From assembly GCF_002980495.1 (NCBI RefSeq), contig NZ_PVBR01000027.1, positions 1 to 64,000 of the forward strand: DNA of 64,000 bases. Reading direction: 5' to 3'. The first letter of the stretch is position 1; each line of letters opens with the position of its first letter. Source of the stretch: Phyllobacterium phragmitis. Lineage in GTDB: Bacteria > Pseudomonadota > Alphaproteobacteria > Rhizobiales > Rhizobiaceae. The notes below the pieces were generated by a model. That model searched no databases. It had not been told where the DNA came from and saw nothing but the letters and a program-made list of their open reading frames with translations. The position numbers were made by a program, and so were the translations under genes. Positions 33,458-36,490 of the stretch are shown here, one piece after another.

Positions 33458-34570
33458 ATGGCATCCAGAAAACTTCTCCTCCTGCCTGGCGACGGCATCG
33501 GCCCCGAAGCAATGGCGGAGGTCCGCAAGATCATTGCCTATTTCAATGCGGATCTGGGCTTGGACTTCGAACTCGATGAGGGGCTGGTCGGCGGCTCCGC
33601 CTATGATGCGCATGGCAAGGCGATCTCGGAAGAAGACATGGGCAAGGCGCTCGCCGCCGACGCCGTGCTGTTCGGCGCGGTGGGCGGCCCGAAATGGGAC
33701 AGCGTCGCTTACGATGTGCGCCCCGAGGCCGGGCTTTTGCGCCTGCGCAAGGACATGGCGCTGTTCGCCAATCTGCGCCCGGCGATCTGCTATCCAGCCC
33801 TCGCCGCGTCTTCCTCGCTCAAGCCGGAAGTCGTCGAGGGTCTCGATATCCTCATCGTCCGCGAACTGACCGGTGGCGTCTATTTCGGCGAGCCGAAGGA
33901 GATCATCGATCTCGGCAACAGCCAGAAGCGCGGTATCGACACGCAAATCTATGACACTTTCGAGATCGAGCGCATCGCCGGCGTCGCCTTCGAGCTTGCC
34001 CGCGCGCGCGGCAACAAGGTCACCTCCATGGAAAAGCGCAATGTCATGAAATCGGGCGTTCTGTGGAACGAGGTGGTCACCGCTACGCATAAAGCGCGTT
34101 ATTCCGACGTCCAGCTCGACCATATGCTGGCCGATGCCGGCGGCATGCAGCTCGTGCGCTGGCCCAAGCAGTTCGACGTCATCGTCACCGACAATCTGTT
34201 CGGCGACATGCTGTCGGATGTGGCGGCCATGCTCACCGGCTCGCTCGGAATGCTGCCGTCAGCCTCGCTGGGCGCGCCCGACGCCAAGACCGGCGCCCGC
34301 AAGGCGCTCTATGAGCCGGTGCACGGCTCCGCCCCGGATATATCAGGCAAGGGCATCGCCAACCCCATCGCCATGATCGCCTCACTCGCCATGTGCCTGC
34401 GTTATTCGTTCAACCTGATCGCCGAGGCCGACCGCCTGGAAGCTGCGATCTCCGGCGTTCTCGACGACGGCCTGCGCACCGCTGACATATGGTCGCAAGG
34501 CTCGACAAAGATCGGCACCACTGAAATGGGCGACGCGATCCTTGGCAAGTTCAAGGCGCTTTCCGCGTAA
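33458..34570 (+). CDS. leuB: 3-isopropylmalate dehydrogenase
   Basis: LeuB oxidises and decarboxylates 3-isopropylmalate with NAD in leucine synthesis. The 370 residues are full length. They show the [10 protein letters not shown] start, the [13 protein letters not shown] substrate loop, the conserved [12 protein letters not shown], and the [27 protein letters not shown] metal/NAD signature (about 246-272). GAAGG lies before the ATG. The upstream spacer carries a Leu-rich mini-ORF, and a terminator follows. leuD is 2.5 kb away on the other strand. Confidence 0.97.
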
Positions 34571-34587
34571 TTCCTTCCATGAAACAG

Positions 34588-34621
34588 AAGGCCCGGCGCG
34601 AACGATCGCACCGGGCCTTTT
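34588..34621 (+). terminator. Rho-independent terminator after leuB
   Basis: A 9-bp stem (AAGGCCCGG, 34588-34596, with CCGGGCCTT, 34611-34619) runs into TTT. It begins 17 bases past the leuB stop. Confidence 0.8.
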
Positions 34622-34943
34622 AGAGCGGTTCACTTTCAGATGAAAACGATGCGTTCAGGCGTTCCTCACTCTTGACGGTGGCAAACACCCTATTCCAACC
34701 GTAGCAACAGCGGCATTGTTGAGACATGGATTCCTGTGACAAGCACAGGAATGACGGAAATGGAGATGGCTTCGCCCCTATAACAACCGTTCTGCAGCGG
34801 AAACGCCTGCGATTGACTGCCCGCACCTAAACTTCCGTCATTCCTGTGCTCGTCACAGGATTCCATGCCTCGTCATCTCCACAGTTCCGGCGGTGCAGAA
34901 TGGTAAGGCTAGACGATTCCATCAAAACAGGAACCGCTCTATT
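34621..34943. repeat. Composite dispersed repeat after leuB
   Basis: Bases 34621-34832 match the reverse complement of 48621-48836 over about 210 bases with only scattered differences. The block includes ATTCCTGTGACAAGCACAGG as one palindrome. A second, inverted arm follows at 34833-34870, and the right end (34913-34941) is the AGGAACCGCTCT element also found at 20846-20872. No coding capacity is evident. It may be a non-autonomous mobile element, but no terminal duplication could be defined by eye. Confidence 0.85.
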
Positions 34944-35038
34944 ATCAGCGGATTTGGCGATCGGTCGCTGGAGACCAATGCCATACAGGGCTGCTCAACC
35001 CAGTTTGAAGCCCGGCCGATCGGCGAGCAAGAGGGCAA

Positions 35039-35066
35039 TTGACTCTTTCCAGAAACGGGGTACAAG
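35039..35066 (+). promoter_or_regulatory. Promoter of the asd leader transcript
   Basis: A -35 of TTGACT (35039-35044) is followed after 16 bases by a -10 of TACAAG (35061-35066). Transcription would start near 35073, about 20 bases before the leader ORF, leaving just room for its AAGGAG site. This tight spacing is typical of attenuated operons. Confidence 0.55.
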
Positions 35067-35092
35067 CACCAACGGACAAGGAGAACTCCCGC

Positions 35093-35224
35093 GTGTATCG
35101 CGTAATTGCTGCGCCAGCTATGTCTCATCTCTCCGGCCTTGCCGCCGGATGTGGGCGCATGTTCTCCCTTTCCACGAACTTCACGGCCAAAACCACCACG
35201 AAAACGACCGCCAAAACGGTCTGA
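35093..35224 (+). CDS. Candidate Thr/Lys leader peptide upstream of asd
   Basis: A 43-codon ORF starts with GTG at 35093, nine bases after a strong AAGGAG, and ends with TGA at 35222-35224, 109 bases before asd. Its last 15 codons read NFTAKTTTKTTAKTV: seven Thr and three Lys. Threonine and lysine are end products of the pathway that Asd feeds. The rest (VYRVIAAPAMSHLSGLAAG and on) resembles no domain I know. A leader peptide whose translation senses charged tRNA-Thr and tRNA-Lys is the best explanation. Confidence 0.6.
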   Translation: MYRVIAAPAMSHLSGLAAGCGRMFSLSTNFTAKTTTKTTAKTV

Positions 35225-35234
35225 TTTCCCTTGG

Positions 35235-35324
35235 CCTGCTCGCCCTCTCCCCGGGTCTGGTCTTGGGGACAAGAGCAACCCGCATGGCCACCGGGTTCGT
35301 GTCTGAAAAGCGGAGAGGGACAGG
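35235..35324 (+). promoter_or_regulatory. Mutually exclusive hairpins between the leader ORF and asd
   Basis: Between leader stop and asd start, CCTG + CCCTCTCC (35235-35238, 35243-35250) can pair with GGAGAGGG + CAGG (35312-35319, 35321-35324). The last bases belong to the asd ribosome-binding site, CAGGAG. Inside, CGGGT (35252-35256) can pair with ACCCG, or AACCCG (35277-35282) with CGGGTT (35292-35297), but not both. GGCCAA in the Thr-codon region (35185-35190) also pairs with TTGGCC (35231-35236). There is no T-run, so control of asd translation is more likely than transcription termination. The direction of the switch is not settled. Confidence 0.45.
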
Positions 35325-35333
35325 AGAAAGCAA

Positions 35334-36368
35334 ATGGGTTTCAAGATTGCGGTTGTCGGCGCCACCGGTAGTGTGGGCCGCGAAATGCTCAATATCCTCG
35401 ATGAACGCGGCTTCCCCGCCGATGAGGTCGTGGCGCTCGCCTCGCGCCGCAGCCAGGGCACGGAAGTCTCCTATGGCGACCGGACACTGAAGGTGAAGGC
35501 GCTCGACGCCTATGATTTCTCCGATACCGACATCTGCCTGATGTCGGCCGGCGGATCGATTTCAAAGGAATGGTCGCCGAAGATCGCCGCGCAGGGCTGC
35601 GTCGTCATCGATAATTCGTCGGCCTGGCGCTACGATCAGGATGTGCCGCTGATCGTGCCGGAAGTGAACCCCGACGCCATCGAGGGCTTCCGCAAGCGCA
35701 ACATCATCGCCAACCCGAACTGCTCGACGGCGCAGCTCGTCGTGGCGCTGAAGCCGCTGCATGACGCGGCCACGATCGAGCGCGTCGTCGTCTCGACCTA
35801 TCAGTCGGTATCGGGCGCCGGCAAGGAAGGCATGGACGAGCTGTTCGAGCAGTCGCGCGGCGTGTTCGTGGCCGATCCGATCACCACGAAGAAGTTCACC
35901 AAGCGCATCGCCTTCAACGTCATCCCGCATATCGACGAATTCATGGAGGACGGCTATACCAAGGAAGAGTGGAAGATGGTGGCCGAAACCAAGAAGATGC
36001 TCGATCCGAAGATCAAGCTGACGGCAACGGCTGTGCGCGTGCCGGTCTTCATCGGCCATTCCGAAGCCGTCAACATCGAGTTCGAAAAGCCGATTTCGGC
36101 CGAGGAGGCACGGGAAATCCTGCGCGATGCGCCGGGCTGCCAGGTGATCGACAAGCATGAAGACGGCGGCTATATCACGCCCTACGAATCCGCCGGCGAG
36201 GATGCCACCTTCATCTCCCGCATCCGCGAGGACATCACGGTGGAGAACGGCCTTGCCATGTGGATCGTCTCGGACAATCTGCGCAAGGGCGCCGCCCTCA
36301 ACACCATCCAGATCGCCGAACTGCTGATCACCCGCGGATTGGTCAAGCCGAAGGCGCTTGCCGCATAA
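35334..36368 (+). CDS. asd: Aspartate-semialdehyde dehydrogenase
   Basis: Asd reduces aspartyl phosphate to aspartate semialdehyde with NADPH, the branch point to lysine/diaminopimelate and to threonine, methionine and isoleucine. The 344 residues show the NADP loop VGATGSVGRE (8-17), the catalytic Cys130 in NPNCST, and the GHSEAVNIEFE substrate motif. CAGGAG lies 8 bases before the ATG. The upstream 110 bases carry alternative hairpins and a Thr/Lys-rich leader ORF. It supplies the cell wall with diaminopimelate and so should be essential. Confidence 0.98.
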   Translation: MGFKIAVVGATGSVGREMLNILDERGFPADEVVALASRRSQGTEVSYGDRTLKVKALDAYDFSDTDICLMSAGGSISKEWSPKIAAQGCVVIDNSSAWRYDQDVPLIVPEVNPDAIEGFRKRNIIANPNCSTAQLVVALKPLHDAATIERVVVSTYQSVSGAGKEGMDELFEQSRGVFVADPITTKKFTKRIAFNVIPHIDEFMEDGYTKEEWKMVAETKKMLDPKIKLTATAVRVPVFIGHSEAVNIEFEKPISAEEAREILRDAPGCQVIDKHEDGGYITPYESAGEDATFISRIREDITVENGLAMWIVSDNLRKGAALNTIQIAELLITRGLVKPKALAA

Positions 36369-36374
36369 AACGTT

Positions 36375-36490
36375 TCTCCGTCATCCTCGGGCTTGTCCCG
36401 AGGATGACGGAGAAAATCGGGCAGAGTGGCGGTAAGCCCTTGAAATTGCAAGGACAGTAGATCCTCGGGACAAGCCCGAGGATGACGGCG
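36375..36490. repeat. Pair of palindromic elements between convergent asd and a peptidase gene
   Basis: 36375-36412 is a near-perfect hairpin with core CCTCGGGCTTGTCCCGAGG. 36459-36490 is an inverted copy of the same core. Both are variants of the element at 2823-2933. Placed seven bases past asd, the first hairpin may terminate transcription from both sides. Confidence 0.75.

What the first reader, a model, noticed from the sequence alone, without database searches (positions are those of the whole stretch)
35039..35333. Thr/Lys-rich leader ORF with alternative hairpins upstream of asd
A promoter (TTGACT-16-TACAAG), a strong AAGGAG and a 43-codon GTG-started ORF lie in the spacer before asd. 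The last 15 codons hold seven Thr and three Lys, both end products made through Asd. Behind the stop, mutually exclusive hairpins and a long-range stem reach the asd ribosome-binding site. Amino-acid-specific leader peptides are well established for trp, leu, ilv, his, phe and thr operons in proteobacteria. I do not recall one described for asd in Hyphomicrobiales, nor one sensing two branches at once. No T-run is present, so the control would act on translation.
Basis: partly seen in the sequence, partly recalled or inferred. Interest (0 to 1): 0.72.

Follow-up and report, generated by a model that had tools for sequence, protein, structure and literature searches.

The report
Threonine/lysine leader peptide before asd
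A short threonine- and lysine-rich reading frame followed by alternative RNA helices sits before the asd gene, which makes precursors of both amino acids; it recurs in most relatives examined and most likely lets ribosome stalling set asd output, a bacterial control of a known kind at a gene where only a brief 2023 suggestion was found.

Summary
A 43-codon GTG-started ORF (35093-35224) with promoter and Shine-Dalgarno site lies before asd (35334); its last 15 codons hold 7 Thr and 3 Lys. It is not chance: in surveys anchored on asd, not on the leader, an ORF with at least 7 Thr+Lys in its last 16 codons lies before asd in 54 of 68 family loci and 39 of 65 loci from other families of the order, against 0.3-0.4% in shuffles. 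Downstream RNA segments co-vary between divergent species: the post-stop segment with the segment holding the second hairpin's 3' arm (z -6.4 family; -4.4 order), more weakly the middle segment with the asd ribosome-binding region. No intrinsic terminator was listed. Best reading: ribosome-mediated attenuation of asd, probably at translation, sensing Thr and Lys. The switch's direction is inferred; equilibrium folding does not show it. Precedent: a 2023 Sinorhizobium meliloti Ribo-seq paper reports translated SEP5, with six Thr and three Lys codons, before an 'aspartate dehydrogenase' gene, as 'possibly a leader peptide', 'conserved only in Sinorhizobium'. New here: breadth, co-varying helices, short-leader variants.

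The parts
35039..35066 (+). promoter of the leader transcript: TTGACT (35039-35044), 16 nt, TACAAG (35061-35066)
   Evidence: read; TTGAC box in 69 of 71 similarity-selected loci, in the printed rows usually followed by TA[C/A]AA[G/C]; not listed by the scan
35078..35083 (+). Shine-Dalgarno AAGGAG of the leader ORF
   Evidence: SD-like 4-mer before the start in 59 of 70 loci with a 36-44 codon leader
35093..35224 (+). leader ORF, 43 codons, GTG start, TGA stop; ends ..FTAKTTTKTTAKTV
   Evidence: the start is ATG at the same place in same-genus L006
35177..35221 (+). Thr/Lys run (last 15 codons: 7 Thr, 3 Lys)
35185..35190 (+). arm A (GGCCAA) inside the Thr/Lys run, complementary to arm B
   Evidence: A x B swap test: z -5.2, p 0.0002 in 24 family representatives; nothing in the order outside the family, z 0.3
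35206..35221 (+). hairpin H0 GACC..GGTC over the last codons, up to the stop codon
   Evidence: perfect 4-bp stem in 66 of 71 loci: GACC/GGTC 57, GACG/CGTC 5, CACC/GGTG 3, AACC/GGTT 1
35225..35236 (+). arm B, just behind the stop (TTTCCCTTGGCC); pairs with arm A or with the 3' arm of P2
   Evidence: B x D swap test z -6.4 (24 family reps) and z -4.4 (32 order reps), both p 0.0002; in the window itself this duplex has internal mismatches
35243..35250 (+). P1 5' arm CCCTCTCC, complementary to 35312-35319 next to the asd SD
   Evidence: M x S swap test p 0.0067 (family), 0.0050 (order), borderline for 12 segment pairs tested; pair counts, where slid controls come close
35249..35268 (+). hairpin P2 (35249-35255 with 35262-35268)
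   Evidence: pair counts; swap tests p 0.0005, 0.001, 0.02, 0.04 (order)
35277..35297 (+). hairpin P3 (AACCCG/CGGGTT, GGCC in the loop)
   Evidence: 89% of cells paired against 31-50% when slid; 20 double-changed cells, 0 of 500 shuffles but 16-23 at slides +1 to +3; swap test z -6.2
35312..35319 (+). P1 3' arm GGAGAGGG, 2 nt before the asd Shine-Dalgarno
35322..35326 (+). asd Shine-Dalgarno AGGAG
35334..36368 (+). asd, aspartate-semialdehyde dehydrogenase (344 aa); named from recall and the finding, no family search was run

Best explanation
The spacer is a ribosome-mediated attenuator of asd. A dedicated promoter starts a short leader mRNA; ribosomes translate the leader peptide, whose end is a run of Thr and Lys codons. 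Proposed working: when Thr- and Lys-tRNA are charged, the ribosome reaches the stop codon and masks arm B, so that P2, P3 and the long stem to the asd ribosome-binding region form and asd is poorly translated. When Thr or Lys runs short, the ribosome halts in the run over arm A, arm B stays free and pairs with the 3' arm of P2, which traps the P1 5' arm in a loop, frees the asd ribosome-binding region and raises Asd. If the leader is not translated, A pairs with B and asd stays off. Shown by sequence: the ORF, its Thr/Lys run, their conservation, and co-variation of A:B (family only), B with the P2 3' segment, P2, P3 and, weakly, P1. Inferred: stalling, the direction of the switch, and action on translation. 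The confidence given is for Thr/Lys attenuation of asd in general; this particular wiring I put at about 0.4. I lowered the figure slightly on rechecking because one support for the wiring is partly built into the method (see evidence against).
For: Asd-anchored survey: T+K of at least 7 in the last 16 codons in 54 of 68 family loci and 39 of 65 other-family loci of the order; shuffle null 0.37% and 0.31%. In the 54 positive family loci Thr is 37% and Lys 21% of the last 16 residues, Ile 3.5%, Met 1.6% (Thr and Lys were also the selection criterion). All 71 similarity-selected loci (the window included) have asd 95-141 nt behind the leader stop; indels in the ORF are mostly multiples of three. 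Promoter box, SD-like motif and start codon conserved. Swap tests, in which a species' own segments pair better than segments mixed between species: B x D z -6.4 in 24 family representatives and -4.4 in 32 from other families, sets without shared loci; A x B z -5.2 in the family; M x S p 0.0067 and 0.0050. When B:D is forced, the pre-SD region opens against the P2 state in 59 of 63 family and 33 of 38 order loci, and the SD in 50 of 63 family loci (p 5e-7). No + strand terminator listed; TTTT occurs between stop+25 and asd in only 7 of 54 family and 5 of 38 order positives. S. meliloti SEP5 is translated by Ribo-seq and tagged Western blot.
Against: Equilibrium folding of the RNA downstream of a ribosome boundary shows no switch: mean SD accessibility is 0.38-0.42 for every boundary before the stop and 0.41-0.48 from the stop to +30. 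The B:D state is less stable than the P2 state by a median 3.6 (family) and 5.7 (order) kcal/mol, lower in only 19 of 63 and 10 of 38. That forced B:D abolishes pairs from the post-stop region to the SD region (9.6 to 0.2 family; 8.5 to 0.4 order) is largely forced by excluding pseudoknots. SD opening is not significant in the order (20 of 38, p 0.19), and in the window's own sequence SD exposure falls (0.25 against 0.30). A:B co-variation is absent outside the family. With 12 segment pairs per test, M x S and M x D would not pass a strict correction. In the column counts, slid controls match P3 in double-changed cells, B:P2 in double-changed cells (10 against 11 at slide +2) and P1 in paired cells (89.2% at slide +2). 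Whole-leader stability is ordinary. 14 of 68 family and 26 of 65 order loci score below 7. No expression data were available.
Confidence: 0.75

Rival explanations
1. Same sensor, opposite wiring: pairing of arm B with the P2 3' arm releases the P1 5' arm (M) to pair with the asd ribosome-binding region, so B:D is the OFF state; a ribosome stalled on the last Thr/Lys codons masks B, P2 forms and asd is on, as in erm-type translational attenuators.
For: M:D and M:S use largely the same M bases (80% shared in the family, 88% in the order set, which held one family locus), B:D and, more weakly, M:S co-vary in both sets, and B:D with M:S is a possible pseudoknot. The Thr/Lys codons run to nearly the end of the ORF.
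Against: The state would be a pseudoknot, which the folding used cannot score; starvation would more often stall the ribosome at the first Thr codons, too far upstream to mask B (reasoning, not tested).
Confidence: 0.3
2. Transcriptional attenuation: P3, a GC-rich hairpin sometimes followed by U residues, or Rho acting on untranslated leader RNA, ends transcription before asd.
For: P3 is a well supported hairpin; GGGTTTT occurs in 12 of 59 aligned family leaders. Rho-dependent termination was not tested.
Against: No + strand terminator was listed in the window, where P3 is followed by CGTG; TTTT occurs between stop+25 and asd in only 7 of 54 family and 5 of 38 order positives; a stem reaching the asd SD would have no role.
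Confidence: 0.2
3. The ORF makes a small protein that acts in trans, like peTrpL of S. meliloti, with the Thr/Lys run part of that function.
For: SEP5 is stable enough to be seen as a tagged protein; a similar N-terminus (MRGLLMALFAFDFPGH) recurs in many of the loci.
Against: Outside the Thr/Lys tail the peptides differ widely, some are only about 10-14 codons long, and in the genus single-base codon differences are not dominated by silent ones (58 silent, 78 not).
Confidence: 0.1
4. Chance AC-rich stretch conserved only as DNA or RNA structure.
For: Some nucleotide constraint is clear (AAAACGGTCTGA block, H0 hairpin).
Against: The Thr/Lys content recurs in very different leaders of other families at a frequency far above shuffles; start codon and frame are kept in the family.
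Confidence: 0.02

Closest known systems
SEP5 sORF of Sinorhizobium meliloti (Hadjeras et al. 2023, PMC10117765; passages read)
   Same: Cluster of six Thr and three Lys codons near the 3' end, in the 5'-UTR of an 'aspartate dehydrogenase' gene (presumably aspartate-semialdehyde dehydrogenase); translation seen by Ribo-seq and by Western blot of a tagged fusion; proposed as a possible leader peptide.
   Different: Described as conserved only in Sinorhizobium, with no RNA structures in the passages read. Here the element is found in most family loci and more than half of the order loci examined, with co-varying alternative helices. The S. meliloti sequence was not obtained here, so identity of the two is inferred.
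thrL leader of the E. coli thr operon (recalled)
   Same: Leader peptide rich in end-product amino acids controlling aspartate-family biosynthesis; senses two amino acids (Thr and Ile).
   Different: Controls thrABC by an intrinsic terminator; here asd, Thr with Lys, no terminator listed.
trp attenuator and peTrpL of S. meliloti (passages; termination recalled)
   Same: Short leader ORF with regulatory codons in the same bacterial order.
   Different: Leaderless 14-aa ORF before trpE and transcription termination; other codons and other gene.
erm-type translational attenuators (recalled; listings)
   Same: Stalled ribosome in a leader ORF changes pairing of the downstream ribosome-binding site.
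   Different: Triggered by antibiotics, not by amino-acid shortage.

Membership tests
Amino-acid leader-peptide attenuator (ribosome-mediated) | short ORF with start codon and SD upstream of a biosynthetic gene | tested here: met
   translation itself was not testable and is reported only for SEP5
Amino-acid leader-peptide attenuator (ribosome-mediated) | cluster of codons for the pathway's end product(s), above chance and conserved | tested here: met
   54 of 68 and 39 of 65 loci against 0.3-0.4% in shuffles
Amino-acid leader-peptide attenuator (ribosome-mediated) | mutually exclusive RNA helices involving the leader ORF or its stop-proximal region | tested here: met
   B:D and M:D share about two thirds of D positions; B:D co-varies strongly in both sets, M:D strongly and weakly
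Amino-acid leader-peptide attenuator (ribosome-mediated) | ribosome position changes the outcome for the downstream gene | tested here: inconclusive
   equilibrium folding shows no switch; the forced-state comparison leans towards one but is partly built into pseudoknot-free folding
Amino-acid leader-peptide attenuator (ribosome-mediated) | expression responds to the cognate amino acids | not testable with these tools
   no expression data
Transcription attenuator with intrinsic terminator | GC hairpin followed by a U-run before the gene | tested here: not met
   none listed on the + strand in the window; TTTT in 7 of 54 family and 5 of 38 order positives
Known Rfam cis-regulatory family | match to a curated covariance model | tested here: not met
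   none here at gathering scores; at E up to 1 the only match in 34570-35400 is a microRNA model on the upstream palindromic repeat, not on the leader

The most novel reading that the evidence does not exclude
A single leader integrates both branches of the aspartate pathway (Lys and Thr) and sets asd translation through a four-arm RNA switch (B, M, D, S) kept across much of the order Hyphomicrobiales, with at least two leader designs (about 40-codon and about 12-codon) and Lys codons mostly AAA, against the preference for AAG in two neighbouring genes, possibly tuning the Lys sensitivity.
Probability: 0.5. Interest if true: 0.62.

Novelty: new member of a known kind. Interest (0 to 1): 0.5.

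Why it matters
Asd stands at the branch point to lysine/peptidoglycan and threonine/methionine/isoleucine (established pathway knowledge). The paper searches run here turned up only one short passage on control of this gene in rhizobia. A leader reading both Thr and Lys would be a compact two-input sensor, widespread in an order that includes plant symbionts, and directly testable with existing Ribo-seq data and simple reporters. It also extends a brief proposal for one genus to much of an order.

Tried and rejected
RNAalifold on the MAFFT alignment gave only 10 pairs: gaps blur the arms, so alignment-light swap tests were used. The first alternative tried, arm B with the P3 3' arm, looked good by pair fraction but shows no co-variation to speak of and was dropped; so was B with the P3 loop. 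B with the SD-proximal segment, seen in several order minimum-energy folds (output partly cut), does not co-vary. The equilibrium boundary scan was negative. For homoserine dehydrogenase in the own genome, L343 shows no T/K-rich ORF upstream (best score 2); for L344 and for dapA (L345) the script may have picked a wrong ORF or start, so they say nothing.

Limits: the 71 first loci were selected by DNA similarity to the leader and cannot show breadth. The family survey used 68 of 69 genomes with asd (one truncated match dropped; the window is one of the 68). The order survey used 67 of 96 outside-family genomes with asd (the best-scoring 27 plus 40 picked), 65 usable. Class outside the order: 29 of 52, 3 with a T/K score of at least 7. 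Alignment A1 holds 59 of 71 loci: near-duplicates removed, and L044 left out for an insertion. The 'order' set wrongly held one family locus (L103); one search repeats it without (38 positives, 32 representatives), and its numbers are the ones given.

Literature: searches of an open-access library surfaced no other report of a Thr/Lys leader at asd (listings only, capped lists); Vitreschak et al. 2004 was not read. PMC10117765, PMC1273637 and PMC4117421 were seen as passages only (the last matched only 'aSD', anti-Shine-Dalgarno); all others as listings.

Full report
What is there. The window's asd gene (35334-36368) is preceded by a promoter-like TTGACT-16-TACAAG (35039-35066), AAGGAG (35078-35083) and a 43-codon ORF from GTG 35093 to TGA 35222-35224, ending NFTAKTTTKTTAKTV. 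Of 74 long ATG ORFs in the window (not all genes), asd alone has such an ORF upstream (score 11 Thr+Lys in the last 16 codons; the next best 6).

Conservation. A DNA search finds the leader in 6 of 6 genus genomes, the window's own included, and in 140 of 297 family genomes, 57 of 109 genera. All of 71 loci taken from these searches (L002 is the window) have asd directly behind it, and each has an ORF whose last 16 codons hold 6 to 13 Thr+Lys, with tails such as TKTTAKTTTKTV. Because that set was selected by similarity, I also anchored on asd itself: 54 of 68 family loci and 39 of 65 loci from other families of the order carry an ORF with at least 7 Thr+Lys in its last 16 codons; dinucleotide shuffles do so in 0.37% and 0.31%. 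Outside the order 3 of 29 loci do. Of the 14 family loci below 7, eight end in a short leader such as MSTRSPIKTTII or MTIRSLTKTSIS (L082, L132, L137, L143, L151, L152, L155, L161), L136 has a long one scoring 6, and five show nothing clear.

Coding evidence. 70 of 71 loci have a start codon 36-44 codons before the stop (46 ATG, 17 GTG, 7 TTG), 59 of them with an SD-like motif; a TTGAC box lies upstream in 69 of 71. Within the genus, substitutions fall on codon positions 1, 2, 3 in numbers 107, 74, 110, and single-base codon differences are 58 silent to 78 not, so the body of the peptide is not under strong selection: what is kept is the Thr/Lys tail. In the 54 positive family loci Lys codons are AAA 145, AAG 33, while asd and the preceding ORF 33458-34570 (leuB-like, named from recall) use AAA 4, AAG 38.

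RNA. Behind the stop lie arm B, a middle segment M with the P1 and P2 5' arms, segment D with the P2 3' arm, hairpin P3, and segment S with the P1 3' arm and the asd Shine-Dalgarno. Swap tests ask whether segments of one species pair better with each other than with those of other species. In 24 divergent family representatives B x D gives z -6.4, A x B z -5.2, M x S p 0.0067, M x D p 0.02; in 32 representatives from other families B x D z -4.4, M x S p 0.0050, M x D p 0.037, and A x B and B x S nothing. Also positive but not interpreted: B x M (adjoining, overlapping windows) and, in the order, D x E z -3.4. Column counts on 59 sequences exceed shuffles for P3, P1, P2 and B:P2-3' and hardly for B:P3, but some slid controls come close. 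H0, a 4-bp hairpin over the last codons, is perfect in 66 of 71 loci with exchanged pairs. No Rfam family covers the leader, and no terminator was listed on this strand.

Function. This is the anatomy of a ribosome-mediated attenuator. Forcing B:D opens the region before the asd Shine-Dalgarno in 59 of 63 family loci and 33 of 38 order loci, which suggests that B:D is the ON state, reached when a ribosome stalled on Thr or Lys leaves B free. Part of this is built in, since folding without pseudoknots forbids M from pairing outwards once B:D is forced. Against it: B:D is predicted less stable than P2 by a median 3.6 and 5.7 kcal/mol, an equilibrium scan shows no switch, the Shine-Dalgarno itself does not open significantly in the order, and in the window's own sequence its exposure does not rise. 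The opposite wiring, with B:D freeing M to mask the SD, remains possible. Kinetics or a pseudoknot, which these programs do not treat, may decide.

Prior work. Passages of Hadjeras et al. 2023 (PMC10117765) describe SEP5 of S. [quoted passage not shown] This is probably the same element, although the S. meliloti sequence was not fetched here. Six paper searches gave nothing further on a leader at asd in their listings.

Host.

Noticed in passing
window 34698-34894: Imperfect inverted repeat (71-nt arms, 76% complementary) containing a palindromic unit CGTCATTCCTGTGCTYGTCACAGGAATCCA; 28 places in the genome match the unit at up to 3 mismatches, 14 on each strand: a dispersed palindromic repeat just upstream of the asd promoter.
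   Followed up: partly
window 36379-36487: Two facing copies of a second palindrome (TCCTCGGGCTTGTCCCGAGGATGACGG) just behind asd; the forward unit is found at 5 places in the genome at up to 2 mismatches.
   Followed up: partly
leaders in L023-L067: Many loci share a similar leader N-terminus (MRGLLMALFAFDFPGH...) although the middle varies; whether this is peptide or RNA constraint is open.
   Followed up: no
L117, L130, L132, L137, L143, L148, L151-L155, L161: Short leaders of about 10-14 codons such as MRTTIKTKTTI, often with Ile, also an aspartate-family product.
   Followed up: partly
L319, L335, L340: T/K-rich ORFs (TTTKKTKTVA, ATTKTATKTAGKTTGV, STKTLTTKKTLA) 112-143 nt before asd in other orders of the class: 3 of 29 loci.
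   Followed up: no
window 35180-35221 and relatives: Lys in the last 16 codons is AAA 145 of 178 times in 54 family leaders, against 4 of 42 in asd plus the preceding leuB-like ORF of the window.
   Followed up: partly
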